Of a DNA stretch of 64,000 bases, positions 11,976 to 61,519 are shown in pieces. Each line of letters begins with the position of its first letter. The first letter of the stretch is position 1. The DNA is from Ancylobacter sp. SL191. GTDB lineage: Bacteria > Pseudomonadota > Alphaproteobacteria > Rhizobiales > Xanthobacteraceae. The stretch covers positions 4,253,001 through 4,317,000 of the forward strand of contig NZ_CP113056.1 of assembly GCF_026625645.1 (NCBI RefSeq). Reading direction: 5' to 3'. Under the pieces are notes generated by a model that was given only the letters and a program-made list of their open reading frames with translations, did not search any database and was not told where the DNA came from. A program made the translations under genes and the position numbers.

Positions 11976-12319
11976 TCTTCACAGCCGGCGGAAGCCTGAT
12001 CTGATCGCTTTAAACGCGATGGGGGCCGGGCCAGTACCGGGATAACGCGCGGCCAACACCCGCTTGGCGTGACACCCCCGGTACATGGAGGATGACGCAT
12101 ATAGTCTATATTCCCATCAATCCACCAATAATCAATATGACACCATCGGCAACAGGCCATTACCTCATAGATTATAGCCCGTCCATATTCTTGCTTATCG
12201 TTTGATATTTCCAGGAACAACGCGCCGGAATCGCGGTTTCTCGAACACCGCAACAACTGGTTTGACGCTAAAACTGTGCCAACTGGCGGTAATTCGAGTT
12301 CATTTTTCTGGAGAGTGCA
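11976..12319. other. Intergenic region with AT-rich core upstream of Mn catalase
   Basis: 344 bp without a gene. A segment at about 12095-12210 is AT-rich (ATATAGTCTATATTCCC; AATAATCAATATGAC). The 3' part carries a probable EcfG promoter (12214-12238), and TGGAGAG at 12310-12316 serves as ribosome binding site for the 12320 start. Confidence 0.5.
12214..12238 (+). promoter_or_regulatory. Probable EcfG promoter of the Mn catalase gene
   Basis: GGAAC (12214-12218), 16-base spacer, then GGTT (12235-12238). The -35 is exact and the -10 differs by one base from CGTT. It lies 81 bases before the catalase start. Mn catalases are common members of alphaproteobacterial general-stress regulons. Confidence 0.6.
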
Positions 12320-13198
12320 ATGTTTTATACTGACGGGAAGCTCCAATACCCCGTGCGTGTCGAGCGGCCGAACCCGGTCTTCGCGCGCGCATTGCAGCAG
12401 GCGATCGGCGGCGTCGAAGGCGAGATCCGCGTGGCCTTGCAGTACATGTTCCAGGCCTTCGGCGCCCGTGGCCCCGCCAAATACCGCGACATGCTGCTGA
12501 ACACCGCCACGGAGGAACTCGGCCATATCGAGATGCTCTCGACCGCCGTGGCGCTCAATCTCGAAAACGCGCCACTGTCGCTCCAGGAGGAAATTTCCGG
12601 CGACGCGATGGGCGGGGCGGTGCTGAACGGAATGGACTTCCGGCACATCCTCTCGACAGGTCTCGCGGCGCTGCCGTCGGACGCCAATGGCGTGCCGTTC
12701 GACTGCTCGCACGTCTATGCCTCCGGCAACATCGCCGCCGACATGTATGCCAATGTCACGGCCGAATCCTCCGGGCGCGCGCTGGCGGTGCGGCTCTACA
12801 ACATGACGGATGATCCGGGCATGAAGGACATGCTGTCCTTCCTCATCGCGCGCGACACCATGCACCAGCAGCAGTGGCTCGCCGCGATCGAGGAAATGGG
12901 CGGCGCCGCGGTGCTGCCGATCCCCAACAGCTTCCCGCAGGAGCAGGAGAACAGTGATTTCTCCTATGTCTATCTCGGCCACATGACCGACGGCTCGATC
13001 CCCACCGGTCGCTGGAGCGAGGGAGCAAGCATCGACGGCACATCCGAGTTCTCCGCCCGCGTCTCCGAGCCCCTCGGCGGCAAGCCGCAGCTCGCTCCGG
13101 CCCGCCCCGATGGCGGCGCGCAGCAGGAGCAGACCACCAAGTCGGGCATGACCGGCGTTGTTGGCGCGGTCGAAGGCTTCATCGAACGCAACGTCTGA
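12320..13198 (+). CDS. Manganese catalase
   Basis: 292 residues. It disproportionates hydrogen peroxide with a di-manganese site in a ferritin-like four-helix bundle. All five expected metal ligands are in place: E35 (VEGEIR), E66 and H69 (EELGH), E149 (TAESSG) and H182 (RDTMHQQQW), matching the known enzymes closely in position. It is cytoplasmic with no signal peptide. The C-terminal 60 residues (after SYVYLGHMTDGS) are the usual extended lobe. The gene stands alone with a probable EcfG promoter in front and a hairpin behind, which fits a stress-induced peroxide scavenger. Confidence 0.93.
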   Translation: MFYTDGKLQYPVRVERPNPVFARALQQAIGGVEGEIRVALQYMFQAFGARGPAKYRDMLLNTATEELGHIEMLSTAVALNLENAPLSLQEEISGDAMGGAVLNGMDFRHILSTGLAALPSDANGVPFDCSHVYASGNIAADMYANVTAESSGRALAVRLYNMTDDPGMKDMLSFLIARDTMHQQQWLAAIEEMGGAAVLPIPNSFPQEQENSDFSYVYLGHMTDGSIPTGRWSEGASIDGTSEFSARVSEPLGGKPQLAPARPDGGAQQEQTTKSGMTGVVGAVEGFIERNV

Positions 13199-13210
13199 AC
13201 TGGAGCGGGC

Positions 13211-13234
13211 GGGCGGTACCGTCGTCCGCCCTTT
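13211..13234 (+). terminator. Hairpin after Mn catalase
   Basis: GGGCGG (13211-13216) and CCGCCC (13226-13231) pair around a 9-base loop and are followed by TTT, 13 bases after the stop codon. Confidence 0.5.
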
Positions 13235-13554
13235 CCACCGGAGCGGAACGGAACCGCCGTCGGCATTGGCGGGCATCTGCTGCACCCGATGATCGATCCT
13301 CGCTGGGAATCATCGAGATGATCGGCTGCGCCGCGCCCGCACCATGCGAGGGCGTCGCCGGCGGCATCGGCATCTCCATGACCGGTAGCGTGGTCGCCCT
13401 GCGCGCCGTCAGCGGCTGGGCCGGCGGCGAGATGTCCTACAGGCACGGTGTCTGCGTCAGCACCCGTGTCGGCCGACCCGGATAATCCAGCGATCATGAA
13501 AGCTTGCCCTCCCGTCGTCCAAACGAGGGTCAGGCGTGAGGAAGCCACGTTGGA
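13235..13554. other. Intergenic region, no supported gene
   Basis: 320 bp between convergent genes. A 55-codon open frame starts at ATG 13318 (product starts MIGCAAPAP), but it has no ribosome site and I recognise no family. It could be a gene remnant; nothing firmer can be said. Confidence 0.35.
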
Positions 13555-13866
13555 TCAGTCGGGCGGCGGCAACATCGGCCGGACGCGCGACGTGCCGCGA
13601 CTGGCGGGCGGTTCTCCGCTTCTCCGCGCGCGATGATGGGGCAGCGCATCGAGGGCGAAGGCCACGATGCGCCCGCCATCGCCGGGATAAAGCTGCGCAC
13701 CCTCCAGCACAGCGCGCGCGAGGCGCAGGCGCAACAGCCGAGCGTCGACCCGCCGAGCGCCGTCTGCCCCCGCGCCAGCCAGCCAGGGCTCCGCCACCAG
13801 GCATTCCGTCACTTCCTGCATGCAGCGATCAAGAAGCTCCACATCGAGCGGCTCGTCGGAAGCCAT
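13555..13866 (-). CDS. Hypothetical protein, 103 aa
   Basis: ATG at 13866 is preceded on its strand by GGAGAGG at good spacing, which argues that this is a real gene. The first 75 residues look like a helical cytoplasmic domain (LLDRCMQEVTECLVAEPWL, LRLRLARAVLEG, GRIVAFALDALPH); the tail is Arg/Pro-rich and probably unstructured. No family recognised. It lies downstream of the Crp-type regulator gene on the same strand, 79 bp away. Confidence 0.55.
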   Translation of the reverse strand: MASDEPLDVELLDRCMQEVTECLVAEPWLAGAGADGARRVDARLLRLRLARAVLEGAQLYPGDGGRIVAFALDALPHHRARRSGEPPASRGTSRVRPMLPPPD

Positions 13867-13945
13867 CCACCTCTCCGGTCCAAGGATGAGCCCTTACTGT
13901 GGACCCTCAAACGGTGCCGCGAAATTACGAAGGTTAAGACTGCAG

Positions 13946-14695
13946 CTACAAATGCGGCGCCGCACCCGTTGGATAGGAGGGCGGCAGCAGCGCGGCGGCA
14001 CGCAGGTCCGGCACGCTGCGGATTTCGAGCTGACGATGGCTGAGCGTTATCAGCCCGGCCGCGCGCAGTTCCTGCAGCGTGCGGTTGACGTGAACCGGCG
14101 AAAGGCCGGTGGCGTCACCAATGTCCACCTGTGTCGCCTGAAAGTCGCAGCGGTTGCCGCTGGCGAGACCGGCGCCGCGCAGGCGCAAATGCACATTGAG
14201 GAGCAGATGAGCCAGCCGCTGGAAGGCAACGCGTTGGCCGAGACTGACCGTCCATTCGCGCTCGGCTCCGATATCCATCAGCGTCTGCACCCACAAGGCG
14301 CGGCCAATGGCCGGGTGTTCGGCAATGAGCCGCTCGGCATCCTCGCGGCGCAGCTCGGCATAGATGACGTCGGTCAGCGTTCCGATGGAATGATCCATCT
14401 GGGCGAGCCAGGGCAAATAGGAGTCGCAGATATCCCCCGGCAGCAGGAAACCGAGCAGGTGCCGCCGTCCATTGGCCAGCAGCTTGTAGCGCGACGCCCA
14501 GCCGGACAGGACGACCCGCACACCGCCGATCGCCTCTCCCTCTTGCGCGAGATCCGCCCGCGCCGGCGCGCACCGAAGCCGGGCAAGCAGCGCCGTCTCG
14601 AGCGGAGCGAGGGCCTCAAGCGGCAACCCGTTCGCCACGGCCATGCGCTGGACAAGGGCGCGGCAGGTCTGACGGAGTTGGGGCGAGATGACCAT
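13946..14695 (-). CDS. Crp/Fnr family transcriptional regulator
   Basis: 249 residues: an N-terminal cNMP-binding-type beta-roll (about 30-140, with GFLLPGDICD matching the family's PGD turn) and a C-terminal winged helix whose recognition region reads DATGLSPVHVNRTLQELRAAGL (split around residue 200). There is no Fnr-type N-terminal cysteine cluster, so it is not an oxygen-sensing iron-sulfur Fnr. Rhizobiales carry many such regulators near stress and respiratory genes. Targets and ligand are unknown; the ADH/SDR operon ends 110 bp upstream on the same strand. Confidence 0.85.
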   Translation of the reverse strand: MVISPQLRQTCRALVQRMAVANGLPLEALAPLETALLARLRCAPARADLAQEGEAIGGVRVVLSGWASRYKLLANGRRHLLGFLLPGDICDSYLPWLAQMDHSIGTLTDVIYAELRREDAERLIAEHPAIGRALWVQTLMDIGAEREWTVSLGQRVAFQRLAHLLLNVHLRLRGAGLASGNRCDFQATQVDIGDATGLSPVHVNRTLQELRAAGLITLSHRQLEIRSVPDLRAAALLPPSYPTGAAPHL

Positions 14696-14805
14696 CAGGT
14701 GTCCTCACGGTTTCAGGTTCGCGTCACCCCGCCGGACCAAGGTGCGGCACAACTATTGCGCGCTTTGCTTGAAATCGGCGGTAAGTCGACACGCCCCCGG
14801 TTGAT

Positions 14806-15126
14806 TTAGCCCGCCTCCGGGCAGACGCCGCTGGCGCATGCCTCGGAGGTGGGGCGCGGCTGACGCCCGACCTCCCCGGCCAATGCCATGAAGGCAAGCG
14901 GCGCATCCTCCCGTTGCAGGGCGGCGCGCAGGAAACGGATGGGGAAGCGGATCGCTTCCTCATTGGAATCGCTAAGTCCCGCTGGCGACGTGCCAATGCC
15001 CCGCTCGGCGCCCGCCAGTGCGTCGACCAGTTCGGCCTGCGAGGCGAGGCCTTTGGCCTTCAGCAGGTCGAGCACCGCGGCCACCGCGAGCAGCAGCCCC
15101 TCCATCTGCAGGTTGGCCGTGTTCAT
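14806..15126 (-). CDS. Hypothetical protein, 106 aa
   Basis: ATG 15126 has GGAGGAAC upstream on its strand. The protein begins with a helical segment (LLLAVAAVLDLLKAKGL) and ends with a short Cys-containing tail. No family recognised. Its ATG would overlap the original TGA of the preceding gene (ATGA) if that gene were read through its in-frame amber codon, so the pair was probably once translationally coupled. Confidence 0.6.
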   Translation of the reverse strand: MNTANLQMEGLLLAVAAVLDLLKAKGLASQAELVDALAGAERGIGTSPAGLSDSNEEAIRFPIRFLRAALQREDAPLAFMALAGEVGRQPRPTSEACASGVCPEAG

Positions 15127-15212
15127 CGCCGTTCCTCCAGCCGGCACACGGCGGCCATCGTCAGCGCCATGGCCACATAGGTCAGGCCGATGGCGCGCGG
15201 GCCGACGACCTT

Positions 15213-15581
15213 CTACCAACCGGGCGTGAGCCGCTTCGGCACGAGGCCGTAATCGACCGCCGCCGCGAAAGCTGACACCGCCAGCGCATCGCCGAGCGCG
15301 GTGCGGCCGGGATAGAGCCGGCGGGCGCTCTCGAACAGCCCCGCCCACAGAACCGAGGCGGCGTGATGGGTGAGGAAGCCGACGGCGGTGTGGGTAAATG
15401 AGAGCTCACGCGAGCGCCCGGCCGCGTCACCCCAGTACCAGTGACTGGTGGCATTGAGCGGCTGCACTGCGGCACGGTTCTCCAGCCGCGCCAGCATGGC
15501 AAGCACGCCGCTGGTCACCACGCTTGCGGCCGTGCCCGAGATCAGACTGCGGATCAAAAGGGTATGCATTGATGGTCCCAT
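15213..15581 (-). CDS. Membrane protein cut short by an in-frame amber codon
   Basis: 122 residues from ATG 15581, which is preceded by AGAGGGCC. Hydrophobic helices are visible at residues 6-30 and about 65-80. The frame stops at TAG (15213-15215) after RLTPGW. It then continues with protein-like sequence, KVVGPRAIGLTYVAMALTMA, to TGA at 15123-15125, exactly overlapping the next gene's ATG. One base change therefore seems to have removed about 29 residues and a membrane helix. A sequencing error would look the same. Family not recognised; it belongs to the ADH-SDR operon. Confidence 0.6.
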   Translation of the reverse strand: MGPSMHTLLIRSLISGTAASVVTSGVLAMLARLENRAAVQPLNATSHWYWGDAAGRSRELSFTHTAVGFLTHHAASVLWAGLFESARRLYPGRTALGDALAVSAFAAAVDYGLVPKRLTPGW

Positions 15582-15596
15582 TGATGGCCCTCTGGC

Positions 15597-16394
15597 TCAG
15601 TGGCTGCCCGAGCCGGGCTCAGCCATCTTGCGGTGCTGCTCGGCGAGCATTCCGGCCGGCGTGACAGTGGCAGCGGCAGTCATCGCCTTGTTCTTCCAGC
15701 CGCTGACGACATCCCCTTCGCCCTTCATCATCGCCGCAAAGCCGGCAGCGGCGACATCGGCCGGGTCGCCCTTGCTGCCGTCCTGACCAACCTGCGTGTC
15801 CAGCATGCCGGCGCGGGCGAAGAACTCGGTATCCGTTGGGCCGGGCATGAGGCAGGTCACGGTGACGCCGCTATCCTTCAGCTCGTTGCGCAGCGCGAAG
15901 GAGAAGGAGTTCAGGAATGCCTTGCTGCCATTGTAGACCGCCTGGAACGAGCCCGGCATGAAGCCGGCGATCGAGCCGGTGATGAGAATCCGCCCCGCGC
16001 TCTGCGCCCGCATCTGCCGGCCGACCAGCTGGATCAGCATGAGCGTGCCCGTCACATTGGTCTCGACCACGCGCCGCCAGTCGGCGGGATCCTGATCGAG
16101 GAAGCCGTGACCAAGACCGAGGCCAGCATTGGCCATGAGAAGTTCCACGGGCCGCCCACTGGCGCGGATGACCTCGACCAGATGGCCGACACCGTCGGCG
16201 GTGGACAGATCGCATTGCACGGGCGTCACCGCCGGAGCGATGGCGCGCAGTTCCCGTGCGGCCTCCTCGATGCGCGCCTCATTCGCCGCGACGATGAGTT
16301 CATAGCCGCGCTCGGCGGCGATGCGCGCGAGTTCCCGCCCGATCCCGGTCGAGGCACCGGTGATGATGGCAAGAGGGCGAGGGGTCGAAGCCAT
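15597..16394 (-). CDS. Short-chain dehydrogenase/reductase (SDR)
   Basis: 265 residues, classical SDR. The Rossmann motif TGASTGIG is at 13-20, NAG near 90, the catalytic Ser in ITGSIAG and YxxxK as YNGSK, with PGP after it. No signal peptide. NAD(P)-dependent oxidation or reduction of a small alcohol or carbonyl compound is expected; substrate unknown. It lies 10 bp after the zinc alcohol dehydrogenase gene and was probably transcribed with it. Confidence 0.88.
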   Translation of the reverse strand: MASTPRPLAIITGASTGIGRELARIAAERGYELIVAANEARIEEAARELRAIAPAVTPVQCDLSTADGVGHLVEVIRASGRPVELLMANAGLGLGHGFLDQDPADWRRVVETNVTGTLMLIQLVGRQMRAQSAGRILITGSIAGFMPGSFQAVYNGSKAFLNSFSFALRNELKDSGVTVTCLMPGPTDTEFFARAGMLDTQVGQDGSKGDPADVAAAGFAAMMKGEGDVVSGWKNKAMTAAATVTPAGMLAEQHRKMAEPGSGSH

Positions 16395-16404
16395 CGGGTA
16401 CTCC

Positions 16405-17574
16405 TCAGGGCTTGAGAACGACCTTGATGCAACCGTCCTGCTTGTCGCGGAACGTCTTGTAGAGGTCGGGCCCATCCTCCAGCCGTGCCGTATGGGTGAT
16501 GACGAAGGAGGGGTCGATCTCGCCATTGACGATGCGGTCGAGAAGCTGCGGCAGATAGTGCTGGACGGGCGTTTGGGCCATGCGGAAGCGCAGGCCGCGA
16601 TTGATCGCGGCGCCCATCGGCACCTTGTCGAGCAGGCCGCCATAGACTCCCACGATGGAGACCGTGCCGAAGTTGCGGCAGCAATGGATCGCCTGACGCA
16701 GCACATGCGGCCGGTCGGTGCCGAGATAGAGCGCGGTCTTCACGCGGTCGACCATGGAGTCGGTGCTGGCCATGCTCTCGGCCTCGGTGCCGACCGCGTC
16801 GATGCAGGCATCGGCGCCACGGCCATGGGTGAGATCGAGCACGCGCTCGTAAATGTCCTCCTCCATGAAATCGAGCGTGATGGCCCCGCTCGCTCGCGCC
16901 AGCGCGAGACGCTCGGGCACGGTGTCGATGGCGATGACGCGCTCGGCGCCAAGAATGAAGGCGGATTTGATTGCCATCTGGCCGACCGGACCGCAGCCCC
17001 AGATGGCGATGGTCTCACCGGGCTGGATGTCGCAATATTCCGCAGCCATGAAGCCGGTGGGGAAGATGTCCGAGAGGAACAGCACCTGCTCGTCGGTCAG
17101 CCCGTCCGGCACCTTGATCGGACCGACATCGGCATAGGGCACGCGCAGATACTCTGCCTGCCCGCCGGCATAACCGCCGAGGATATGCGAATAGCCGAAC
17201 AGGCCGGCGGGGCTGTTACCCCACAGCTTGGTTGCCGCCTCACGGTTCGGGTTGGAGCGCTCGCAGCCGGAGAAATAGCCGCGCTTGCAGAAGAAACACT
17301 CGCCACAGGAGATGGTGAACGGCACGACGACGCGATCGCCGACCTTCAGCTTGGTGTTGTCCTTGCCGACCTCGACCACCTCGCCCATGGTCTCGTGGCC
17401 CATGACGTCACCGCTCTCCATGCCCGGCATGATACCGTCATAGATATGCAGGTCGGAGCCGCAAATGGCGCAGGCGGTGACCTTGATAATGGCGTCGCGG
17501 CCATGTTCGATGCGGGGATCGGGCACGCTTTCACAGCGAATGTCGCTCTTGCCGTGCCAGGTCAGTGCTTTCAT
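16405..17574 (-). CDS. Zinc-dependent alcohol dehydrogenase (formaldehyde dehydrogenase-like MDR)
   Basis: 389 residues from ATG 17574 (MKALTWHGK). Catalytic zinc ligands lie in CAICGSDLH and GHE; the structural zinc loop [15 protein letters not shown] supplies four cysteines. The nucleotide site reads [10 protein letters not shown]. This matches the threonine-dehydrogenase/glutathione-independent formaldehyde dehydrogenase branch often seen in stress operons. It is first of a four-gene operon (ADH, SDR, broken membrane protein, 106-aa protein). A near-match EcfG promoter lies 34 bp upstream. Confidence 0.9.
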
Positions 17575-17607
17575 GCCAGTTGCCCTCGTCGCGGATGTCG
17601 TTGCGAC

Positions 17608-17632
17608 AATGCGCGACACGGATCACTGTTCC
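17608..17632 (-). promoter_or_regulatory. Weak EcfG-like promoter of the ADH operon
   Basis: On the minus strand, GGAAC (17632-17628), a 16-base spacer and CATT (17611-17608). The -35 and spacing are exact but the -10 has one mismatch from CGTT. It sits at the right distance from the 17574 start. Confidence 0.35.
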
Positions 17633-17741
17633 GCAGGAACACTGGTATTGAATTCGGATCTACGTATTACCTCCAGCGAATATTATTATGACACCGGCTT
17701 TACTTATCTACCTACCAGAATCGGCCGCGAACTGAGCAGGC

Positions 17742-19061
17742 TCACTCGTCATCGGCCGCCGGCAGACAGGCGGGGTCGCTCGCCGCCTGCGCCAGCGCGG
17801 CGAAACGGCTCCAGGGGCACAGGCCCGCCGGATCGGCGCCGCACGCCCCGATCTGCACGGGCGTCGTGGAGGGTGGGTTCTGCGCATCGAGCGTGGCGCC
17901 GCTGCGCAACTGATCCAGGCTCTGCACGATATAGACGAGGCGCAGCATCAGCGCGCCGGTGGGCGGCTGCCACAGCTCGAAGGCGAAGGCCCCGCCCGGT
18001 GGCAGCTGATAGGGGTGGAAGCCCGGCGGCGCCCATGTGAGATCGAGCATCCCGGCGAGCGCCAGCATCAGCGTGTCGTGGCTCGAAAAATAGGTGAAGG
18101 CCGGTCCCTGCCCCGCCGCCAGTTCGGTGAGCGCCGCGAGCACGGGCGACAGCACCGGCGTGCCACGCTTCACCGCCTGATAGGGCGGCATGAAGGCGAT
18201 GCGCTCGCTCGCGGCATGAAGGGCGTTCACCTCCATGATGGCGGCGGGTAGTGACTTGCCGGCCGCCGCGGGCAGGCGCCCCCAGCCGATGCCGTCACCC
18301 GGAAGGTCGGCCCCATATTGCATGATGAACTGCTCGGAGGTCTGGGCGGCGACGTGCAGCCCGTCAAAACCGTCCCCGTTCGCCGCCAGCGTCGCCAGTG
18401 AACAGGGCGCTGCCACGCCATGCGCCACGCAGGCTTCAGGGCGGAAGGGGCCGAGCACCGTGTCAAGCACGCCGAGCGGGCGGGCGAGCTCGCCGCGCAT
18501 CAGCTCGGCCGGCGTCACACCGGCGAGGGCGATGGAGGCGGCACGGGCCTGCGCTGCCTCATAGCCGCAGGCCGGGCCGTGATAGAGCTTGGGACGGACC
18601 TGAAGATTGGGCAGCAGGCAGCCGGGAAACATGCCGTCCATCACAGCGCCGGCGCTCAGCAAGGTGCGCTCGACACCATCGGAGATGAAGGCCACACGCG
18701 AAGCCGGAGGGCACTCCACCAGCGGGAACAGGCCGGCCTGTGCGTAATGGCGGCGGTAGAAATCGCCCATCACCCGCATCCGCGCGAAGCCGGCATCGGT
18801 GAGATGGCCCGAGGCCACGGCGGGGTCCGGCCAGCGGTCGGCGCCGAGCGCATCGAGGCAGTCGCCGGGCTTCTCGACCCCGCCGCAGCGGACGGCGATG
18901 GTAACGGCGCGCATGCCATGGCGGCTCAGAATGACCGTACCCTTGAGCTGCCAGTCGGCTCCGGGCGGATCGAGCGGCCCGGCGACGGCGGCGCCGTACA
19001 CGAAACCGGCCGCCAGCACGGCAAACAGCCGCACGCCCCACCTACGCCACGCACCCGCCAT
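17742..19061 (-). CDS. Histidine acid phosphatase (phytase/glucose-1-phosphatase type), secreted
   Basis: 439 residues with an N-terminal signal peptide (basic start, then LFAVLAAGFVYGAAVAG). The catalytic RHGxR motif is RHGMR at 47-51, carrying the nucleophile His48; the proton-donor motif is HD in SSHDTLML, about residue 330. It would hydrolyse phosphate monoesters, perhaps phytate or sugar phosphates, in the periplasm. It follows gcd on the same strand after a 58-bp gap. Linking sugar oxidation and phosphate release in one unit would suit phosphate scavenging, but that is inference. Confidence 0.85.
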   Translation of the reverse strand: MAGAWRRWGVRLFAVLAAGFVYGAAVAGPLDPPGADWQLKGTVILSRHGMRAVTIAVRCGGVEKPGDCLDALGADRWPDPAVASGHLTDAGFARMRVMGDFYRRHYAQAGLFPLVECPPASRVAFISDGVERTLLSAGAVMDGMFPGCLLPNLQVRPKLYHGPACGYEAAQARAASIALAGVTPAELMRGELARPLGVLDTVLGPFRPEACVAHGVAAPCSLATLAANGDGFDGLHVAAQTSEQFIMQYGADLPGDGIGWGRLPAAAGKSLPAAIMEVNALHAASERIAFMPPYQAVKRGTPVLSPVLAALTELAAGQGPAFTYFSSHDTLMLALAGMLDLTWAPPGFHPYQLPPGGAFAFELWQPPTGALMLRLVYIVQSLDQLRSGATLDAQNPPSTTPVQIGACGADPAGLCPWSRFAALAQAASDPACLPAADDE

Positions 19062-19119
19062 TGCCGCTCCGCTCCTCTGACCGCGCGGTATTATACGCGG
19101 CGAGGATGAAGCGGAACTG

Positions 19120-21447
19120 TCAGCGTGGCAGCGTGTAGGCGATGACGTAATCGCCCGCCTTGGTGCCGACCGAGCCATGACCGCCGGCGACCTGGACGAT
19201 GAACTGCCGCCCGTCGGCCTCATAGCTCATCGGCGTCGCCTGCCCGCCCGCCGGCAGGCGCTGCCGCCAGAGCACCTCCCCCGTCGCGACATCATAGGCG
19301 CGCAGATAATTGTCGATGGCGGCGCTGAGGAAGGCGACGCCGCCCGCTGTCACCATCGGCCCGCCAATGCCGGGCACGCCAAGCGTGATCGGCGGCAGCG
19401 GAATGGGCGCGGCGTCGCGCATCGTGCCGTTGCGCCGCATATAGGCCTTCTCCCCGGTCTTCAGATCCACGCCGCTGACATAGCCCCAGGGCGGGGCCTG
19501 GCAGGGCAGGCCGAGCGGCGAGGTGAACGGGCCCATGCGCACGCCATAATCGCCGCCCTCATTCACATTCAGCCCCGCCTCGCTGGAGTTGACCTGCTCG
19601 TCCGCGTCGATCTCCTCGGCACGGACAAGCTCCGAGGTGAAGGCGATGTAGGTCGGCATGGCGAACATCACCTGCCGCACCGGGTCGACCGCTACCGAGC
19701 CCCAGTTGAAGGTGCCGAAATTGCCGGGATAGACCAGCGAGCCCTGGAATGTCGGCGGCGTGAAGCGGCCCTCATAGCGCAATGAGTGGAACCTGATGCG
19801 GCAGGCGAGCTGGTCGAGCAAGCTCGCGCCCCACATGTCGCTCCCGCGCAGTGGTTCCGGCGCGAAGCTGAGCGATGAGACCGGCTGCGTCGGCGCGGTG
19901 AAGTCACCGGGAATATCCGCTCCGCTCGGCGCCGGCTGCTCGCTCACCGGCAGCACCGGCGTGCCGGTGCGGCGGTCGAGAACATAGATGTCTCCCTGCT
20001 TCGTGGGAATGACCACCGAGGGGATGGACTGGCCGCCGCGCGTGATGTCGATCAATACCGGCTGGGCTGGAACGTCCATGTCCCAGAGGTCGTGATGCAC
20101 GGTCTGGAACACCCAGCGCAGCCGCCCGCTCGCCACATCGAGCGCGACCACCGAAGAGGAGAAGCGCTCCACCGCCGGGCTACGGTCGATGCCGATCTGG
20201 TCCGGCGTCTTGTTGCCGAGCGGCACGTAAACCAGGCCGAGTTCGGCATCGGCGCTGAAGATCGACCAGCTGTTGGGGGAATTAGGGGTGTAGGTCTCGC
20301 CCTCCGCCAGCGGCTCCGTGCGGTCCGGGTTGCCGGAATCCCACGCCCAGAGCAGCGCCCCGCTGCGCACGTCATAGCCGCGGATGACGCCGGAGGGCGC
20401 CGCGATGGCGTAATTGTCGTTCACCGCGCCACCAATGATCAGCACGTCATTGACGATGGTCGGCGGCGAGGTGGAGTAGTAGAAGCCCGCGCGCTGATTG
20501 GGCATGTTGGCCCACAGGTTCACCACGCCATCGTCGCCAAACTCCGGGCAGATTCCACCGGTCAGGGCATCGAGCGCGATGAGCCGGGCATCCGCCGTCG
20601 GCAGATAGATACGCGCGGTACAGGCGGGCGCCGCCGCGACATCGGCCTCCGCCACTGCCCCGTCGCGGAAATAGGACACGCCGCGGCAGGTCTGATGCTG
20701 GCGCGAGGGCTCCATGCCGGCATTGGGATCGTAGCGCCAGCGCTCCTGTCCGGTCGCGGCATCGAGGGCGATGGCGAGGCTGTGCGGCGTGCAGAGGTAA
20801 AGCAGATTGCCGATCTTCAGCGGCGTGACTTGATAGGTGGTCTCCGTCACGTCGTCGGGACGACGCACATCGCCGGTCTGGTAGGTCCAGGCGACCTCAA
20901 GGCGACCGACATTCTCCGGTGTGATCTCGCGCAGCGGCGTGTAGCGCTGGCCGGCCAGCGTGCGGCCATAATGCGCCCACTCGGCCGCCGGCACGCCGCC
21001 ATCCGGCGGATCGTTCGGCTCGACGGTGGTGACGAGACGCCCTTCCAGGGTGTGCGGATCGCGCGCCAGCGCGGCGCCCGCGACACCGACGCAGGCGAGG
21101 ATCACGACACCGAGCGCGATCCGGCTCGCGTCCCAGCGGCGGCCGGACCCGACCGCCCAGGGGGTCAGCAGCCAGACGCCCATGAGCACCACGAGTCCGC
21201 CGCGCGTGCCCAGCGGCCACCAGTCGAGGCCAACTTCCCATACGGACCAGCCCAACGTCCCCGCCAGCAGAAGCGCATAGAGCAGCCGCGCCTGCGGGCG
21301 GCGGCTCATGACCAGCGCGGCACAGAGCAGAAGGCCGAAACCAAGCACGAGATAGAACCAGCTCCCACCCAGACTGATCAGCCAAATGCCGCCGCTCGTC
21401 AGGAACAGGCCGATGAGAGCAAAGACGACAATGGTGAGGATGCGCAT
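19120..21447 (-). CDS. gcd: Membrane-bound PQQ-dependent glucose dehydrogenase family protein
   Basis: 775 residues from ATG 21447. About five membrane helices occupy residues 1-120 (TIVVFALIGLFLTSGGIWLI first), then a periplasmic eight-bladed PQQ propeller begins near EWAHYGRTLAGQRYTPL. It contains repeated W-docking motifs (ERWRYD, LRWVFQ, VLWRQRLP) and the segment YVPLGNKTPD typical of Gcd. It oxidises glucose (or quinate/shikimate in sister enzymes) in the periplasm and feeds ubiquinone. PQQ synthesis genes are not in the window. A perfect EcfG promoter lies 136 bp upstream, leaving a long leader. Confidence 0.9.
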   Translation of the reverse strand: MRILTIVVFALIGLFLTSGGIWLISLGGSWFYLVLGFGLLLCAALVMSRRPQARLLYALLLAGTLGWSVWEVGLDWWPLGTRGGLVVLMGVWLLTPWAVGSGRRWDASRIALGVVILACVGVAGAALARDPHTLEGRLVTTVEPNDPPDGGVPAAEWAHYGRTLAGQRYTPLREITPENVGRLEVAWTYQTGDVRRPDDVTETTYQVTPLKIGNLLYLCTPHSLAIALDAATGQERWRYDPNAGMEPSRQHQTCRGVSYFRDGAVAEADVAAAPACTARIYLPTADARLIALDALTGGICPEFGDDGVVNLWANMPNQRAGFYYSTSPPTIVNDVLIIGGAVNDNYAIAAPSGVIRGYDVRSGALLWAWDSGNPDRTEPLAEGETYTPNSPNSWSIFSADAELGLVYVPLGNKTPDQIGIDRSPAVERFSSSVVALDVASGRLRWVFQTVHHDLWDMDVPAQPVLIDITRGGQSIPSVVIPTKQGDIYVLDRRTGTPVLPVSEQPAPSGADIPGDFTAPTQPVSSLSFAPEPLRGSDMWGASLLDQLACRIRFHSLRYEGRFTPPTFQGSLVYPGNFGTFNWGSVAVDPVRQVMFAMPTYIAFTSELVRAEEIDADEQVNSSEAGLNVNEGGDYGVRMGPFTSPLGLPCQAPPWGYVSGVDLKTGEKAYMRRNGTMRDAAPIPLPPITLGVPGIGGPMVTAGGVAFLSAAIDNYLRAYDVATGEVLWRQRLPAGGQATPMSYEADGRQFIVQVAGGHGSVGTKAGDYVIAYTLPR

Positions 21448-21582
21448 GGGCCGGTCCTTCCGTGGCGCAGGCCCGCGCCACGAGGCAGCGCGAGCGGGCA
21501 GATCACGGACGCGCTTCACGCAGGCGCTTCCGTGATCTGCCGTTAGGACATGGGGCGGATGAATGATCGGTCGTCTTCGCGT

Positions 21583-21607
21583 AACGGGCAAAGCGCCCGA
21601 GCGTTCC
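21583..21607 (-). promoter_or_regulatory. EcfG promoter of gcd
   Basis: Minus-strand GGAAC (21607-21603), 16-base spacer, CGTT (21586-21583). Exact match; the implied 5' leader before the gcd ATG is about 130 bases. Confidence 0.7.
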
Positions 21608-21684
21608 ATGCCCATTGCCGGGCCAGCGCGCGAACCGGGCGAGACGCCGCGCATTGAGGTGCATTTGCGTCAGCCGAGCGTGCG

Positions 21685-21962
21685 ATGCGTGAGGATCGAT
21701 CCACGGCGCCGGAGAGCGGCACGACGGGGCCCGTGACCGGAGCCGATCAGCTCATCGACGCCTCCACGGTGCTGGCGAGACCACCGGCGTCAACTCCTTG
21801 CTGGGGGTTAGCCCCTCCACACGGGATTCCTTTACCCAGGTGGCGATCAGCGACATAGTCGAAATCCGTTCGAGCGAACTCGCCCTTGAGCGTGGCGACC
21901 GCAAGACGCTGCCCGACCTCAAGCACCACCTCGACATGGCCAAGAAGCTGGCCGGCGACTGA
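21685..21962 (+). pseudogene. Frameshifted DUF4142-like small gene
   Basis: From ATG 21685 one frame reads through GADQLIDASTVLA; near 21775 the similarity jumps to another frame that continues ETTGVNSLLGVSPSTRD, then FTQVAISDIVEIRSSELALE and LDMAKKLAGD to TGA 21960-21962. Restoring one base gives a 92-residue protein. The second part resembles the start of the DUF4142 ferritin-like domain and is shorter than usual (about 150 aa), so the gene is probably also truncated. A one-base sequencing error is the alternative. Confidence 0.55.
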
Positions 21963-22057
21963 CCGATAAACGTTCCAAACGGAGCTCCGGCCCTTGAGCC
22001 TCGGCCCGGCTGTGCCAATCTGACCGGGCGGGGGCGCATTGTGAGCAGGGAACGTCC

Positions 22058-23392
22058 ATGTCCACCAAAAGCGACTATCCCGCCAGCGCAACGCAGGTCG
22101 CGCCGCGTCACCGCGTGGTCATCATCGGTGCCGGGTTCGGCGGTGTGCAAGTCGCGCGCGGCCTCGCTTCCGCGTCGGCGGATGTCACGCTGATCGACCA
22201 GCATAATTACCACTGCTTCCAGCCGCTGCTCTATCAGGTGGCGACCGCCGTGCTCTCGCCGGCCGACATCGCCTGGCCGATCCGGCACATCCTCGCCGGC
22301 CAGCCCAACCTCACCATGCTGATGGCCCGCGCCGAGGGGGTGGACCGCGCCGCCCGCGTGGTGAACACCAGCGAGGGGCCGATCCCCTATGACATTCTCG
22401 TCCTAGCCACCGGGGCCACCTATGCCTATTTCGGCCATGACGACTGGGCCGAGGCGGCGCCGGGGCTCAAGAACATCGAGGACGCCACGCGCCTGCGCCG
22501 GCGCATCCTGCTCGCCTTCGAGCGCGCCGAAACGACCCGCGACGAGGCGGAACGCCGCCGGCTGCTGACCTTTGCCGTCATCGGCGGCGGACCGACGGGT
22601 GTGGAAATGGCCGGCGCCATCGCCGAGGTGGCCCGGCACGCGCTGGCGCCGGATTTCCGCAATGTCGATCCGCGCACGGCGCGCATCCTGCTGATCGAGG
22701 CCGGCCCGCGCCTGCTGCCAGCCCTGCCGGAGAACCTCGCCACCTATGCCGCCCACCGCCTTGAATCGATGGGCGTGGAGGTGATGACCGGCACGCCCGT
22801 GACGTCCATCGACGCGCATCAGGTGGCGCTGGGCGACGGCACGACCATCGAGACCGCCACCACTGTCTGGGCCGCCGGGGTGAAGGCCTCCGGCGCCGGG
22901 CAGTGGCTCGGGGCCGAGACCGACCGCGCCGGGCGCTGCCTCGTCACGCCCCAGCTCACCCTGCCCGGCGATCCCGCCATCTTTGTCATTGGCGACACGG
23001 CCTCGGTGAAGGACGCCGCCGGCAAGCCGGTGCCGGGCATCGCCCCCGCCGCCAAGCAGATGGGCGCCTATGTCGCCAGGGTCATCCGCGCCCGCCTCGC
23101 CGGCAAGGCGGAGGTCGGGCCGTTCCGCTACAGCCATCAGGGCGATCTCGCCACCATCGGGCGCAATTCCGCCGTGGTGAAGCTCGGCCGGTTCGAGCTC
23201 ACGGGGTTTCTGGGCTGGGTGTTCTGGGGGATCGTCCATGTCTACTTCCTGATCGGCACGCGCAACCGCCTCGCCGTCGGCACCACCTGGCTGTGGAACT
23301 ACGTCACCAACCAGCGCGCCGCCCGGCTCATCACCGGCGACACCACGGCCGGCGAGCACAGGCCGGCGGCTCCGGTGTCTTCCCCCTCCTAG
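22058..23392 (+). CDS. Type II NADH dehydrogenase (NDH-2)
   Basis: 444 residues. An FAD-binding Rossmann motif (VIIGAGFGGVQVA, residues 20-32) and a second NADH-binding motif (VIGGGPTGVEMAG, about 177-189) mark the pyridine-nucleotide disulfide oxidoreductase fold. YHCFQPLLYQVAT matches the conserved quinone-side motif of NDH-2, and the C-terminal LGWVFWGIVHVYFLIGTRNR is the membrane-anchoring amphipathic region. It passes electrons from NADH to quinone without pumping protons. A gene of this sort beside gcd and the alternative oxidase suits an uncoupled, stress-tolerant respiratory chain. Confidence 0.9.
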   Translation: MSTKSDYPASATQVAPRHRVVIIGAGFGGVQVARGLASASADVTLIDQHNYHCFQPLLYQVATAVLSPADIAWPIRHILAGQPNLTMLMARAEGVDRAARVVNTSEGPIPYDILVLATGATYAYFGHDDWAEAAPGLKNIEDATRLRRRILLAFERAETTRDEAERRRLLTFAVIGGGPTGVEMAGAIAEVARHALAPDFRNVDPRTARILLIEAGPRLLPALPENLATYAAHRLESMGVEVMTGTPVTSIDAHQVALGDGTTIETATTVWAAGVKASGAGQWLGAETDRAGRCLVTPQLTLPGDPAIFVIGDTASVKDAAGKPVPGIAPAAKQMGAYVARVIRARLAGKAEVGPFRYSHQGDLATIGRNSAVVKLGRFELTGFLGWVFWGIVHVYFLIGTRNRLAVGTTWLWNYVTNQRAARLITGDTTAGEHRPAAPVSSPS

Positions 23393-23422
23393 CTGAACCT
23401 GAGCCCCCGCCTGAGCTCTTAT

Positions 23423-23447
23423 GGAACGGCACCCGGCCCGAAGCGTT
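23423..23447 (+). promoter_or_regulatory. EcfG promoter of the GlsB-type gene
   Basis: GGAAC (23423-23427), 16-base spacer, CGTT (23444-23447), exact match, 50 bases before the 23498 start codon. Confidence 0.75.
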
Positions 23448-23497
23448 GAACCGGGCCGCTGCTGGGCGGCGTTTCGTGTGACTGGAGGGCTAACACA

Positions 23498-23749
23498 ATG
23501 GAAGACGCACAGATCGGGTGGATCGCCGCCATCATTATCGGCGGTCTCGCCGGCTGGATCGCCTCGGCGATCATGAAGACCGGCACCGGCATTTTTCTCA
23601 ACATCGTGCTCGGCATCATCGGCGCCGCCGTGGCGAGCTTCCTGTTCGGCTTCTTCGGCATCGGCTTCGGCGGGTGGATCGGTTATCTCGTGGCCGGTGT
23701 CATCGGTGCCTGCATCCTGATCGGGCTGGTGCGGGCGATCCGAAGCTAG
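23498..23749 (+). CDS. GlsB/YeaQ/YmgE family stress-response membrane protein
   Basis: 83 residues, preceded by GGAGGG. Three hydrophobic segments with glycine-zipper spacing are visible (IIGGLAGWIASAIMKTG, NIVLGIIGAAVASFLFG, IGYLVAGVIGACILIGLV), the standard pattern of this transglycosylase-associated family of small inner-membrane proteins. The molecular role is unsettled; induction by acid or osmotic stress is the usual finding. The exact EcfG promoter ahead supports stress control here. Confidence 0.9.
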   Translation: MEDAQIGWIAAIIIGGLAGWIASAIMKTGTGIFLNIVLGIIGAAVASFLFGFFGIGFGGWIGYLVAGVIGACILIGLVRAIRS

Positions 23750-23755
23750 CCGGCC

Positions 23756-23935
23756 ATGGCGCTCGGCTACCACGCATCGCACGAGCAGTTCGCCCCGGCA
23801 AACGGCGCGCCGGCATCATCGCGGCGGGCACGTGGGTTCCGCGACATCTACCTTCACAATGTCGGAGTAAACCAGCGCGCCTTCATCGATGATTTCGGCG
23901 CGAAGGTGCTGCCGCATTTTCCCTCGGCAGCCTGA
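23756..23935 (+). pseudogene. Internally deleted LLM-class flavin oxidoreductase gene
   Basis: A 59-codon frame joins a typical N-terminus, MALGYHASHEQFAP, directly to a typical C-terminus, RDIYLHNVGVNQRAF followed by GAKVLP. These resemble the two ends of the TIGR03885-type flavin-dependent oxidoreductases, normally around 320 residues, so some 260 residues are missing while the frame is kept. The middle joint (ANGAPASSRRARGF) is not family-like. Relatives often neighbour GH13 glucosidase genes, as here. It may still be translated but cannot be an enzyme. Confidence 0.6.
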
Positions 23936-23959
23936 CGCGCCGCATACAGGAGAGCCGAC

Positions 23960-25558
<1,599 letters not shown>

Positions 25559-25621
25559 GGCCTATTGAAGCAAGGGGCACCGCGACTATGCTACCGGCGC
25601 TCTGACCGGGACTTATCGCGC

Positions 25622-26185
25622 ATGCCCCTCGATTTGACCGCCGCCGCCCTGATCCCGATCGACATGCAGAAGGGCTTCGACGACCCGAAGTGGCCGCCGC
25701 GCTGGAACACGGCCTCGGACGATCATGGTCGCGCGCTAATCGCGGCGTGGCGGGAAGCGGGGCGGCCGATCTTCCATGTGCGCCATGACTCGGTGGAGGA
25801 AGGCTCAACGCTCCGCCCCGACCATCCCGGCAATGCGCTGCGCGACGGCTTCACCCCCGTGGGCGACGAGCCGCTGATCACCAAATCGGTCAACGCGGCC
25901 TTCATCGGCACCGATCTCGATTTGCGCCTGCGCCGGGCAGGGATTTCCACCCTCGTGCTCTTCGGCATCTCCACCGATATGTGCGTGTCGACCACCACGC
26001 GCGTGGGCGCGAATCTCGGCTATCGGGTCATTCTGGTCGAGGATGCCTGCGACTGCTTCGACCTGCCGAACCCGCACGGGGGCGTCATCCCCGCCCGCAC
26101 GGTCCACGACATCCACGTGGCGACCCTGCGCTACGAATTCGCCACGGTCGCCACGACGGCCGAGGTGCTGGCGGCGCTGGGTTAG
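25622..26185 (+). CDS. Isochorismatase-like cysteine hydrolase
   Basis: 187 residues from ATG 25622; a longer form from 25565 lacks a ribosome site. The catalytic triad of the family is visible: D14 (IPIDMQKGF), K88 (LITKSVNAAF) and C121 (FGISTDMCVSTT), with the conserved cis-peptide region before the cysteine. These enzymes split amide or ester bonds of small molecules (nicotinamide, ureidoacrylate, isochorismate); substrate not predicted. The stop overlaps the end of the convergent GH13 gene by 4 bp. Confidence 0.85.
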   Translation: MPLDLTAAALIPIDMQKGFDDPKWPPRWNTASDDHGRALIAAWREAGRPIFHVRHDSVEEGSTLRPDHPGNALRDGFTPVGDEPLITKSVNAAFIGTDLDLRLRRAGISTLVLFGISTDMCVSTTTRVGANLGYRVILVEDACDCFDLPNPHGGVIPARTVHDIHVATLRYEFATVATTAEVLAALG

Positions 26186-27849: not shown

Positions 27850-27878
27850 ACAGCGCTTCTCCGCGGGGGCGAGAGCGC

Positions 27879-27903
27879 AACGCTCTGGAAGAGCGCCCGT
27901 TCC
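27879..27903 (-). promoter_or_regulatory. EcfG promoter of the TreS-like gene
   Basis: Minus-strand GGAAC (27903-27899), 16-base spacer, CGTT (27882-27879), exact match; a short leader of about 25 bases to the 27849 start is implied. Confidence 0.72.
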
Positions 27904-27921
27904 ACCGGGAATCCCACTCCT

Positions 27922-28179
27922 TCAGCTTTCGCCGAGAAGCTTCCGGTACTCCTCGCCCAGCGCCTCGATGGTCCCGGCAGCGAAAGGCCACTCGCCATCG
28001 ACGACACCCTGGCGAATCTCATTGGCAAGAATCGGCCAGAACCGCTCCACCAGGTCGGCCACCCGCCTCTCCGCGATGCCATGGGCGCGCAGATCAAGAG
28101 CGCACATTTCGCGCGCGGTCTGTTCGGTGCGTTTCAACCTGCCCCTCGACGCCTCGGGCGGCCGCGGGCTAACCCGCAC
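27922..28179 (-). CDS. Hypothetical protein, 85 aa
   Basis: GTG 28179 follows GGAAAGG by 8 bases, better supported than ATG 28107. The conserved-looking half is RRVADLVERFWPILANEIR then AFAAGTIEALGEEYRKLL-like helices. No membrane segment. No family recognised. It lies between the PilZ-like gene and the TreS-like gene on the same strand. Confidence 0.5.
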   Translation of the reverse strand: MRVSPRPPEASRGRLKRTEQTAREMCALDLRAHGIAERRVADLVERFWPILANEIRQGVVDGEWPFAAGTIEALGEEYRKLLGES

Positions 28180-28196
28180 GCCGCCAGCCTTTCCGG

Positions 28197-28475
28197 CTAT
28201 TCCTCGTTGAGAAAGGAGATGTCGCCCACGCTACGGAACTTCAAGCCTTCAGCGGACATATCCAGCACCTCAATGGGCATCCAGCGGCCGCTTTCCAGGA
28301 CCAGTGTTGCCCGGCGGGCGCTGCGCGCCTCCACCATCTGGGCCAGTTCCGCCCGTACATCACCCGTCGCGACGCGGCTCTCATGGACGTGGTCGAGCAC
28401 GTAGCTGTAGCTCGCTGTCGATGAGCCCGACATGCTCGTGCGCAGCCAGCCACGCCCTTTGAATGTTCGTGTCAT
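28197..28475 (-). CDS. Short PilZ-like protein, apparently truncated
   Basis: 92 residues from ATG 28475. After an N-terminal helix, SARRATLVLESGRWMPIEVLDMSAEG resembles the first half of a PilZ domain (RxxxR-type start, then DxSxxG), which in full-length members binds cyclic di-GMP. The frame stops after about 15 more residues, where PilZ domains usually run on for 50. It may be a degenerate or non-binding member. The promoter lies in 28476-28746, where I found no EcfG motif. Confidence 0.5.
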   Translation of the reverse strand: MTRTFKGRGWLRTSMSGSSTASYSYVLDHVHESRVATGDVRAELAQMVEARSARRATLVLESGRWMPIEVLDMSAEGLKFRSVGDISFLNEE

Positions 28476-28746
28476 TCCACCATCCCGACCCGTTGGCGCC
28501 GACCGGCCCGCCACGTGGCAAACCATGGTTCCCGCGCCCATTCCGCAGGTCTTCCGAGGAGCCCTAGGATCCGCCCTTCAGTACTAATACGTACGAAAAG
28601 CCGGAAGGATCGCCGCGGCCTGGATTTATTTGCCGGCTTTTGTCACCGGATCGCCGAACCCGGGCGCACATGCCGCGTTGCCTAGGGAGTGCGCCCGCCG
28701 CTGGCCGGTGGGTGCCGTGTGCAGCCACGCATGGATTGACGCGACA

Positions 28747-30933: not shown

Positions 30934-30958
30934 GGGTATCTCCTTTGTCTCGAAAGGG

Positions 30959-30983
30959 AACGCGCCCGATCGGACACGGTTCC
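30959..30983 (-). promoter_or_regulatory. EcfG promoter of the DUF883-like operon
   Basis: Minus-strand GGAAC (30983-30979), 16-base spacer, CGTT (30962-30959), exact match, just ahead of the ribosome site of 30933. Confidence 0.78.
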
Positions 30984-41442: not shown

Positions 41443-41451
41443 GCGGAAATC

Positions 41452-61057: not shown

Positions 61058-61070
61058 TTTCAAGAAGCGC

Positions 61071-61091
61071 TGAACGCGGCGTCCGCGTTCA
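61071..61091. terminator. Hairpin between convergent genes
   Basis: TGAACGCGG (61071-61079) and CCGCGTTCA (61083-61091) form a perfect 9-bp stem with a 3-base loop, overlapping the minus-strand gene's stop codon. No clear T-run on either side. Confidence 0.4.
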
Positions 61092-61463
61092 CGCCATGAT
61101 CGCCGCCCAGATCGCCAGCAGCGCGCCCATCACCACCACCGCGCCGGCCAGCACATAGGCGGCGCGGCGGTTGCCGCCCCGGCCATGGCGGGGCGCGGCG
61201 GGGGCGCCCGGCATCTGGCCGGGAAGGCTGTCCTGCGCCTCGTCATTATAGGGCCGGCCTTCCTCGCCGGTATCGCCCGGCGGCGGCTCGCGCCCGGCCC
61301 CGCCTTCGGTGGCGCGGGCGAGCGCCACGCGCTCGGCGGTCGGCGGCGTGCCGGCTGCCTCGTCATCCGTGCCAAGCGGCGCCGCCGCCGGGTCGGAGAA
61401 CGGCACCTTGTCGCCGGCCTTGCCCCGGTCGATATCCGCGCGCAGTCGATCCGCCGTCGTCAT
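61089..61463 (-). CDS. Small hypothetical protein with C-terminal membrane helix, EcfG-type promoter
   Basis: 124 residues from ATG 61463. The N-terminus (TTADRLRADIDRGKAGDKV) is helical and charged and the middle is Pro/Gly/Glu-rich. One membrane helix, AAYVLAGAVVVMGALLAIWA, ends the protein, so it is anchored with the bulk in the cytoplasm. No family recognised. Its exact EcfG promoter 32 bp upstream marks it as a probable stress-response protein like the DUF883 and GlsB types. Confidence 0.65.
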   Translation of the reverse strand: MTTADRLRADIDRGKAGDKVPFSDPAAAPLGTDDEAAGTPPTAERVALARATEGGAGREPPPGDTGEEGRPYNDEAQDSLPGQMPGAPAAPRHGRGGNRRAAYVLAGAVVVMGALLAIWAAIMA

Positions 61464-61494
61464 ATCTGTCCCGCCTGCTGTGGTTCCCAAGGGT

Positions 61495-61519
61495 AACGGC
61501 CCGTTGCTGCCGCGGTTCC
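61495..61519 (-). promoter_or_regulatory. EcfG promoter of the 61463 gene
   Basis: Minus-strand GGAAC (61519-61515), 16-base spacer, CGTT (61498-61495), exact match. Confidence 0.75.

What the first reader, a model, noticed from the sequence alone, without database searches (positions are those of the whole stretch)
12214..61519. Dense EcfG (general stress sigma) regulon in one region
Seen: exact GGAAC-N16/17-CGTT motifs lie upstream of ten transcription units, at 21583-21607, 23423-23447, 27879-27903, 30959-30983, 32095-32119, 32156-32180, 34817-34841, 34861-34886, 41418-41442 and 61495-61519. Near matches lie at 12214-12238 and 17608-17632. Each points toward a gene start at plausible distance, and eight of the ten exact sites lie within 20 kb (21.6-41.4 kb). 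Known: this is the promoter of the alphaproteobacterial sigma factor EcfG, controlled by PhyR-NepR. By simple base-count odds, about one exact match would be expected in 64 kb on both strands, far fewer in intergenic DNA. Inferred: a physical stress-gene cluster combining peroxide defence, sugar metabolism, DNA topology and respiration.
Basis: partly seen in the sequence, partly recalled or inferred. Interest (0 to 1): 0.72.

Follow-up and report, generated by a model that had tools for sequence, protein, structure and literature searches.

The report
Stress-response promoter island in Ancylobacter chromosome
A 30,000-base stretch of a bacterial chromosome packs together about a fifth of the promoters that look switched on by its general stress regulator, in front of protective genes that differ between close relatives, which suggests that such genes collect in one place together with their own switches.

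Summary
All ten exact GGAAC-N16/17-CGTT sites exist (0.61 expected). Nine of ten, not eight, lie within 20 kb. The single-contig 4.65-Mb genome has 67 matches (reversed control 39); 10 lie in this 1.4% of it, and the densest 20 kb is here (0 of 4000 random placements). All ten point at a start codon 21-135 bp away; one heads an unlisted 84-aa frame before a caa3-type oxidase operon.

The genome (Ancylobacter, GTDB sense) has an ecfG-nepR/phyR/kinase locus with its own sites. In congeners the motif follows the genes: 60 of 82 orthologs of site genes keep it, 2 of 120 of other genes. The near match before Mn-catalase is supported, that before the alcohol dehydrogenase is not. The 61.5-kb site lies outside the island.

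Against the sister genome, five segments of the island are missing from the matching stretch, while the flanks align collinearly (95% and 88%). Best reading: an EcfG-regulon island that gains and loses promoter-plus-gene modules. Regulator and promoter are well known; I found no description of such islands in nine paper searches. No expression data.

The parts
21583..21607 (-). EcfG-type promoter, 135 bp before the PQQ-dependent membrane glucose/quinate dehydrogenase gene 19120-21447
   Evidence: 12 orthologs: 6 exact, 11 with one mismatch allowed; gene is TIGR03074 over cut-off
23423..23447 (+). EcfG-type promoter, 50 bp before 23498-23749 (transglycosylase-associated small membrane protein)
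   Evidence: exact in 4 of 4 orthologs
27879..27903 (-). EcfG-type promoter, 29 bp before 26182-27849 (trehalose-synthase-like GH13)
   Evidence: exact in 14 of 14 orthologs; TIGR02456 619 bits, below its cut-off of 678
30959..30983 (-). EcfG-type promoter, 31 bp before 30673-30927 (84 aa, no Pfam)
   Evidence: 2 of 2 orthologs
32095..32119 (-). EcfG-type promoter, 27 bp before 31606-32067 (DUF2934 protein a), with isochorismatase-like 31004-31591 behind it
   Evidence: 6 of 6 orthologs
32156..32180 (+). EcfG-type promoter, 62 bp before 32243-33349 (topoisomerase IB), divergent from the previous site
   Evidence: 13 of 16 orthologs exact, 15 of 16 with one mismatch allowed
34817..34841 (-). 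EcfG-type promoter, 26 bp before 34212-34790 (DUF2934 protein b)
   Evidence: 1 of 1 ortholog
34861..34886 (+). EcfG-type promoter (17-bp spacer), 21 bp before small ORF 34908-35162
   Evidence: 5 of 10 orthologs of the small ORF; AAAAC in place of GGAAC in sister genome G035
34908..35162 (+). 84-aa reading frame, no Pfam family; beside the caa3 operon in 8 of the 10 congeners where it was found
35239..40817 (+). caa3-type oxidase operon: COX2-cytochrome c, COX1, 38732-39100 (no Pfam), CtaG, cytochrome c
   Evidence: no COX1 above 40% identity in sister G035; segment missing there
41418..41442 (-). EcfG-type promoter, 40 bp before 40880-41377 (DUF892 family)
   Evidence: 8 of 15 orthologs exact, the other 7 differ only in the first base of the -10 box
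12214..12238 (+). Probable EcfG-type promoter with -10 GGTT, 81 bp before the manganese catalase gene 12320-13198
   Evidence: both orthologs found carry GGAAC-N16-TGTT or -GGTT 109-111 bp upstream
17608..17632 (-). Near match before alcohol dehydrogenase 16405-17574; not supported
   Evidence: 0 of 4 orthologs even with one mismatch
11976..41451 (.). The island, between the EamA transporter gene 11013-11975 and the AraC-type regulator 41452-42465. Segments with no blastn alignment in the matching stretch of sister G035: 11976-17755, 19103-21900, 28640-30547, 30987-31626, 34903-40808
61495..61519 (-). EcfG-type promoter, 31 bp before 61089-61463 (124 aa, no Pfam); outside the island
   Evidence: kept in sister G035, no exact site in G025

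Best explanation
The ten motifs are promoters of the general stress sigma factor EcfG (ECF15), and 11976-41451 is an EcfG-regulon island. Under stress, PhyR sequesters NepR, EcfG is freed, and RNA polymerase starts at nine promoters within 20 kb, plus a probable one before Mn-catalase. This turns on catalase, trehalose/maltose enzymes, topoisomerase IB, a caa3-type oxidase, a DUF892 protein, DUF2934 proteins and small proteins together. The island is dense because EcfG-controlled modules, each with its own promoter, have collected at this locus and are gained and lost there; the modules sit in other orders and places in congeners. Shown: motif positions, statistics, linkage of motif and gene across species, presence of the regulators, segments missing in the sister. 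Inferred: transcription, stress induction, each gene's role, and the gain and loss history.
For: Ten exact sites against 0.61 expected; 67 in the genome, with the densest 20 kb here. EcfG-like sigma, NepR, PhyR and HWE kinase at 190-193 kb of the contig, with sites facing nepR-ecfG and phyR. Exact motif in 60 of 82 orthologs of site genes, 2 of 120 of other genes, reversed control 0 of 202. Around topoisomerase IB in 15 other Ancylobacter genomes, 26 further sites in 286 kb against about 4.2 expected, control 3. Topoisomerase IB loci of other genera: 75 motif against 16 control matches in 51 alphaproteobacterial loci; 3 against 5 in 20 other loci, or 7 against 6 in 23 when three left-out loci are added. 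Five segments missing in the sister inside aligned flanks. Four plasmid loci of other Alphaproteobacteria also show an excess of GGAAC-N16/17-NGTT sites.
Against: No expression data. No exact site in 3 of 16 TopoIB orthologs, 5 of 10 small-ORF orthologs, 6 of 12 PQQ dehydrogenase orthologs and 7 of 15 DUF892 orthologs (of these the TopoIB, PQQ and DUF892 ones are mostly one base off). In other genera only 14 of 51 TopoIB loci have an exact site within 350 bp upstream (control 2). Orthologs are related by descent, so the Fisher value (5e-30) overstates independence. No empty site was found, so accretion is not proved. One paralogous pair (DUF2934 a and b) could have added a site by local duplication.
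Confidence: 0.82

Rival explanations
1. The promoters are real EcfG promoters, but the dense grouping is an old static neighbourhood of a few gene pairs (TopoIB/DUF2934, the two GH13 genes, DUF892), inherited whole, with losses elsewhere and no accretion.
For: TopoIB-DUF2934 divergent pairs, the GH13 pair and the caa3 operon recur as units in congeners. Seven of the nine island sites also stand in sister G035. G035 keeps a CCGTT box but AAAAC where this genome has the 34861 site, which fits loss of the oxidase module there.
Against: In G010 the TopoIB, GH13 and caa3 units lie 0.6 to 3.3 Mb apart, whereas TopoIB and caa3 are neighbours in G007, G008, G024 and G026. Five segments are missing from the matching stretch of the sister.
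Confidence: 0.3
2. Some or all motifs serve another ECF sigma factor (for example an ECF26-type factor with overlapping specificity) rather than EcfG.
For: In S. meliloti, RpoE6 (ECF26) shares 27 of its 40 targets with RpoE2 (PMC6180224, passages). The other ECF sigma factors of this genome were not counted.
Against: GGAAC-N16-CGTT is the EcfG motif in R. etli and Sphingopyxis (PMC3892343, PMC7083833, passages); it stands in front of nepR-ecfG and phyR here; and the ECF26 consensus is given as GGAATA/GT.
Confidence: 0.08
3. Chance or composition: G+C-rich intergenic DNA throws up the motif.
For: 39 reversed-control matches occur in the genome, so a good part of the 57 matches outside the window may be chance; 11 of those 57 lie inside called genes.
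Against: 0 of 100 shuffles reach 10, 0 exact reversed-control matches in the window, and ortholog linkage.
Confidence: 0.01

Closest known systems
EcfG (ECF15)/PhyR/NepR general stress response regulon of Alphaproteobacteria
   Same: Same promoter, same regulators at one locus, overlapping target genes (topoisomerase IB in S. melonis, treS in B. diazoefficiens; passages).
   Different: The papers I saw passages of give the regulon as a gene list; here 10 of 49 upstream-type exact sites of the genome (with the small-ORF site counted) sit in one 64-kb window.
[quoted passage not shown]
   Same: Many stress genes packed into one locus (tLST: search listing and start of abstract only, PMC8290217).
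   Different: tLST is reported mainly from beta- and gamma-proteobacteria. Here no integrase, transposase or tRNA was found, and one sigma-factor promoter type unites the genes.
Stress-gene neighbourhoods on alphaproteobacterial plasmids (Ensifer adhaerens pCTYH.Ch1_2, Phyllobacterium zundukense p_unnamed1)
   Same: Ensifer: ferritin-like (DUF892 hit), TopoIB, DUF2934, CsbD, PRC-barrel and general stress protein genes, with 16 GGAAC-N16/17-NGTT sites in 24.5 kb (control 6). Phyllobacterium: DUF892, isochorismatase, catalase and cytochrome oxidase genes, with 10 sites in 24.5 kb (control 3).
   Different: Plasmid-borne; only 6 and 0 exact CGTT boxes; the Ensifer stretch has its own sigma-70 family factor, a PAS-domain protein and a response regulator; Phyllobacterium shows no annotated TopoIB.

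Membership tests
EcfG (ECF15) promoter | -35 GGAAC, 16-17 bp spacer, -10 CGTT | tested here: met
   10 exact sites
EcfG (ECF15) promoter | Position shortly before a start codon, in the right direction | tested here: met
   21-135 bp for 10 of 10
EcfG (ECF15) promoter | Motif kept before orthologous genes | tested here: met
   60 of 82 against 2 of 120; beyond the genus only 14 of 51 TopoIB loci
EcfG (ECF15) promoter | EcfG-dependent transcription start | not testable with these tools
   No expression data held
PhyR-NepR-EcfG system | ecfG next to nepR, divergent from phyR, kinase nearby, sites before both units | tested here: met
   L055: EcfG-like sigma 12154-12708, NepR 12705-12947, PhyR 13149-13952, HWE kinase 13965-15284; sites at 13021 (-) and 13086 (+)
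Mobile genomic island | Integrase or transposase, tRNA attachment site, odd composition | tested here: not met
   No tRNA in the window; no integrase or transposase family among the called island genes (the AraC-type gene at the edge has a sub-cut-off hit to a transposase HTH model); G+C 0.65-0.69 against 0.64-0.71 elsewhere in the window
Variable (gain/loss) locus | Gene content differs between close relatives inside conserved flanks | tested here: met
   Five segments missing from the matching stretch of G035; different content again in G029
Variable (gain/loss) locus | An empty site with joined flanks in a relative | tested here: inconclusive
   Both flank genes were found in six of 30 genomes: together round an island in three (G000, G035, G029), apart in G021, G005 and G004

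The most novel reading that the evidence does not exclude
EcfG islands are a recurring form of genome organisation in Alphaproteobacteria: stress genes travel as promoter-plus-gene cassettes and settle beside other such cassettes, on chromosomes and megaplasmids, so that the sigma factor's regulon evolves by physical accretion at a few hot spots rather than by promoter birth at scattered genes.
Probability: 0.4. Interest if true: 0.62.

Novelty: new variant of a known kind. Interest (0 to 1): 0.45.

Why it matters
The EcfG regulon is usually described gene by gene from mutant transcriptomes. A locus where a fifth of the likely promoters lie together, and where modules differ between sister genomes while carrying their promoters, gives a direct way to ask how a stress regulon gains and loses members. 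It also points to uncharacterised proteins (DUF2934, 34908-35162, 30673-30927) as stress genes worth testing, and to plasmid loci that can be compared with it.

Tried and rejected
Rejected: chance or composition. Rejected: the near match at 17608 as an EcfG promoter (0 of 4 orthologs). Its CATT box alone would not exclude it, since the S. melonis TopoIB site also ends in CATT. Rejected: the 61495 site as part of the island, since 41452-61088 has no site and holds an amino-acid permease, amine oxidase, isocitrate lyase, malate synthase, mechanosensitive channel and FtsK genes (seven genes of that stretch scanned). Rejected: a classical mobile island. No Rfam family reached its cut-off in the window. 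Positions around the two boxes gave only weak preferences (39 sites outside the window). Paper searches for a description of clustered EcfG targets listed none that I recognised as such from titles and starts of abstracts; the lists were capped, and papers outside the held library were not seen.

Errors and dropped rows. In one search I set the small ORF one base out of frame; corrected. In one search, best hits under 40% identity or 50% coverage were dropped; no row was dropped for a cut upstream region. Orthologs were taken from the fetched stretches only, which were chosen because they hold relatives of TopoIB, the GH13 gene, COX1 or the PQQ dehydrogenase. The kept sites have constant boxes by definition, so only the variety of their spacers is an observation. 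Of these, L095 has 2 motif and 0 control matches and L133 has 2 and 1, so the non-alphaproteobacterial count becomes 7 against 6 in 23 loci with L095, L129 and L133 added. The expected 4.2 uses a density of 72 per 4.9 Mb that I set by eye. The match list for G032 and that were cut and were not used in the simulations; the length of G011 was entered as a round 4.0 Mb.
Full report
Observation. The window is 4253001-4317000 of a single-contig genome of 4,654,763 bp. That genome has 67 matches, against 39 for the reversed pattern. So a good part of all matches may be chance, but not those here: 10 of 67 fall in 1.4% of the genome, 9 of them within 19.9 kb. After merging sites closer than 250 bp (64 left), 7 remain in one 20-kb stretch, a number that none of 4000 random placements reached anywhere. 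A second cluster, 6 matches at 182-194 kb, is the regulator locus.

What the sites point at. With a simple codon-usage gene caller, 39 of the 57 matches outside the window and 9 of 10 inside it lie within 250 bp upstream of a start in the right direction; 11 outside lie inside genes and 7 are elsewhere. The tenth window site, 34861-34886, is 21 bp before an 84-aa reading frame (34908-35162) that the caller missed. Relatives of that frame were found in ten other Ancylobacter genomes, in eight of them beside the caa3 oxidase operon. Gene families.

Regulators. One NepR match was found in the genome. Its locus holds an EcfG-like sigma factor overlapping nepR, a divergent phyR and an HWE kinase, with one exact site facing nepR-ecfG and one facing phyR. 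This is the layout described in PMC8103513 (passages). Further EcfG paralogs were not searched for.

Who it is. The nearest of the 30 genomes searched is G035 (topoisomerase IB 89%, GH13 98%).

Comparative test. For 37 window genes (10 with a site, 27 without) I took the best hit in fetched stretches of other Ancylobacter genomes and looked 300 bp upstream. Site genes: 60 of 82 orthologs have an exact motif. Other genes: 2 of 120. Reversed pattern: 0 of 202. By gene: transglycosylase-associated 4/4, trehalose-synthase-like GH13 14/14, 30673-30927 2/2, DUF2934a 6/6, TopoIB 13/16, DUF2934b 1/1, DUF892 8/15, PQQ dehydrogenase 6/12, small ORF 5/10, 61089-61463 1/2. With one mismatch allowed within 200 bp (eleven genes tested), DUF892 becomes 15/15, PQQ dehydrogenase 11/12 and TopoIB 15/16, while seven of the eight genes without an exact site together give 2 of 52. 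All seven DUF892 differences, and most PQQ ones, are in the first base of the -10 box. Flexibility of that box is documented in Sphingopyxis (PMC7083833, section 10). The eighth such gene is Mn-catalase: both orthologs have such a site, so that near match is supported; the alcohol dehydrogenase has none in 4. Among the kept exact sites the 16-17 bp between the boxes differ widely.

Island structure. Between the EamA gene (ends 11975) and the AraC-type gene (starts 41452) this genome has 29.5 kb, sister G035 14.0 kb and G029 10.9 kb. Against G035 the right flank aligns collinearly at 95% for 23 kb and the left at 88% for 11 kb; shared blocks inside range from 77 to 94%. Five segments of this genome find no alignment in that stretch of G035: catalase to alcohol dehydrogenase, PQQ dehydrogenase (G035 has 0.7 kb of unaligned DNA there), the SDR/DoxX-DUF2269 pair, isochorismatase 2, and the oxidase operon. 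At the start of the oxidase segment G035 keeps the CCGTT box but has AAAAC in place of GGAAC, which fits loss of the operon there and decay of its promoter; gain here is not excluded. In other congeners the modules lie elsewhere: in G010 at 1.05, 3.77 and 4.36 Mb; in G007, G008, G024 and G026 TopoIB and the oxidase are neighbours; in G009 and G036 TopoIB is near Mn-catalase. Around TopoIB in 15 congeners (G000 and G035 left out) there are 26 further sites in 286 kb, about six times the genome density, and 3 control matches. These genomes are related, so the formal P value (7e-13) is only a guide.

Beyond the genus. In 51 TopoIB loci of other alphaproteobacterial genera the motif occurs 75 times and the control 16; but only 14 of the 51 have an exact site within 350 bp upstream of TopoIB itself (control 2). 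In 20 loci of other groups the counts are 3 and 5, or 7 and 6 in 23 loci with three that I had left out. A Hyphomicrobiales MAG locus (L089) has 9 exact sites in 20.9 kb. TopoIB and DUF892 relatives occur in 310 and 316 plasmid records; I fetched four by hand from the 35 rows listed. Their GGAAC-N16/17-NGTT counts against the reversed control are 10 and 3 (Phyllobacterium), 16 and 6 (Ensifer), 11 and 4 (Rhizobium CCGE532), 8 and 0 (Tistrella); exact CGTT sites are 0, 6, 3 and 1. The Ensifer and Phyllobacterium stretches hold gene kinds most like those of the window.

Mechanism. Shown: sites, positions, conservation, regulators. Inferred from the known system: stress phosphorylates PhyR, which takes NepR from EcfG, and EcfG-polymerase starts at these promoters. 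TopoIB is an EcfG-dependent gene with a GGAAC site in S. melonis (PMC6599016, passages); treS is in the EcfG regulon of B. diazoefficiens (PMC8092242, passages). The likely joint output is peroxide removal, trehalose or maltose turnover, relief of supercoiling and an alternative oxidase; each role is read from the family name only.

Novelty. Promoter, regulators and target types are known. A regulon island with module turnover was not found in nine paper searches (listings; passages of six papers), which covers only the held open library. I file it as a new variant of a known kind of locus.

Noticed in passing
window 34908-35162: Unlisted 84-aa small protein gene without Pfam family, with relatives in ten other Ancylobacter genomes, in eight of them beside the caa3 operon.
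   Followed up: partly
L214 (Ensifer adhaerens pCTYH.Ch1_2 252771-277253): Plasmid stretch of stress genes with 16 GGAAC-N16/17-NGTT sites (control 6) and its own sigma-70 family factor, PAS-domain protein and response regulator.
   Followed up: partly
L089: Nine exact EcfG-type sites in 20.9 kb around TopoIB in a Hyphomicrobiales MAG.
   Followed up: no
L193 (G027): Eight exact sites in 10.6 kb around TopoIB, with partly different neighbours from those in the window: another island in the genus.
   Followed up: partly
window 17742-21447: A histidine acid phosphatase (phytase-like) beside a PQQ glucose/quinate dehydrogenase: a pairing that would fit phosphate mobilisation.
   Followed up: no
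G000 191414-191439 (L055 13415-13440), inside phyR: An exact motif inside the phyR coding sequence, antisense, kept in G035 and G032; probably coding constraint.
   Followed up: no
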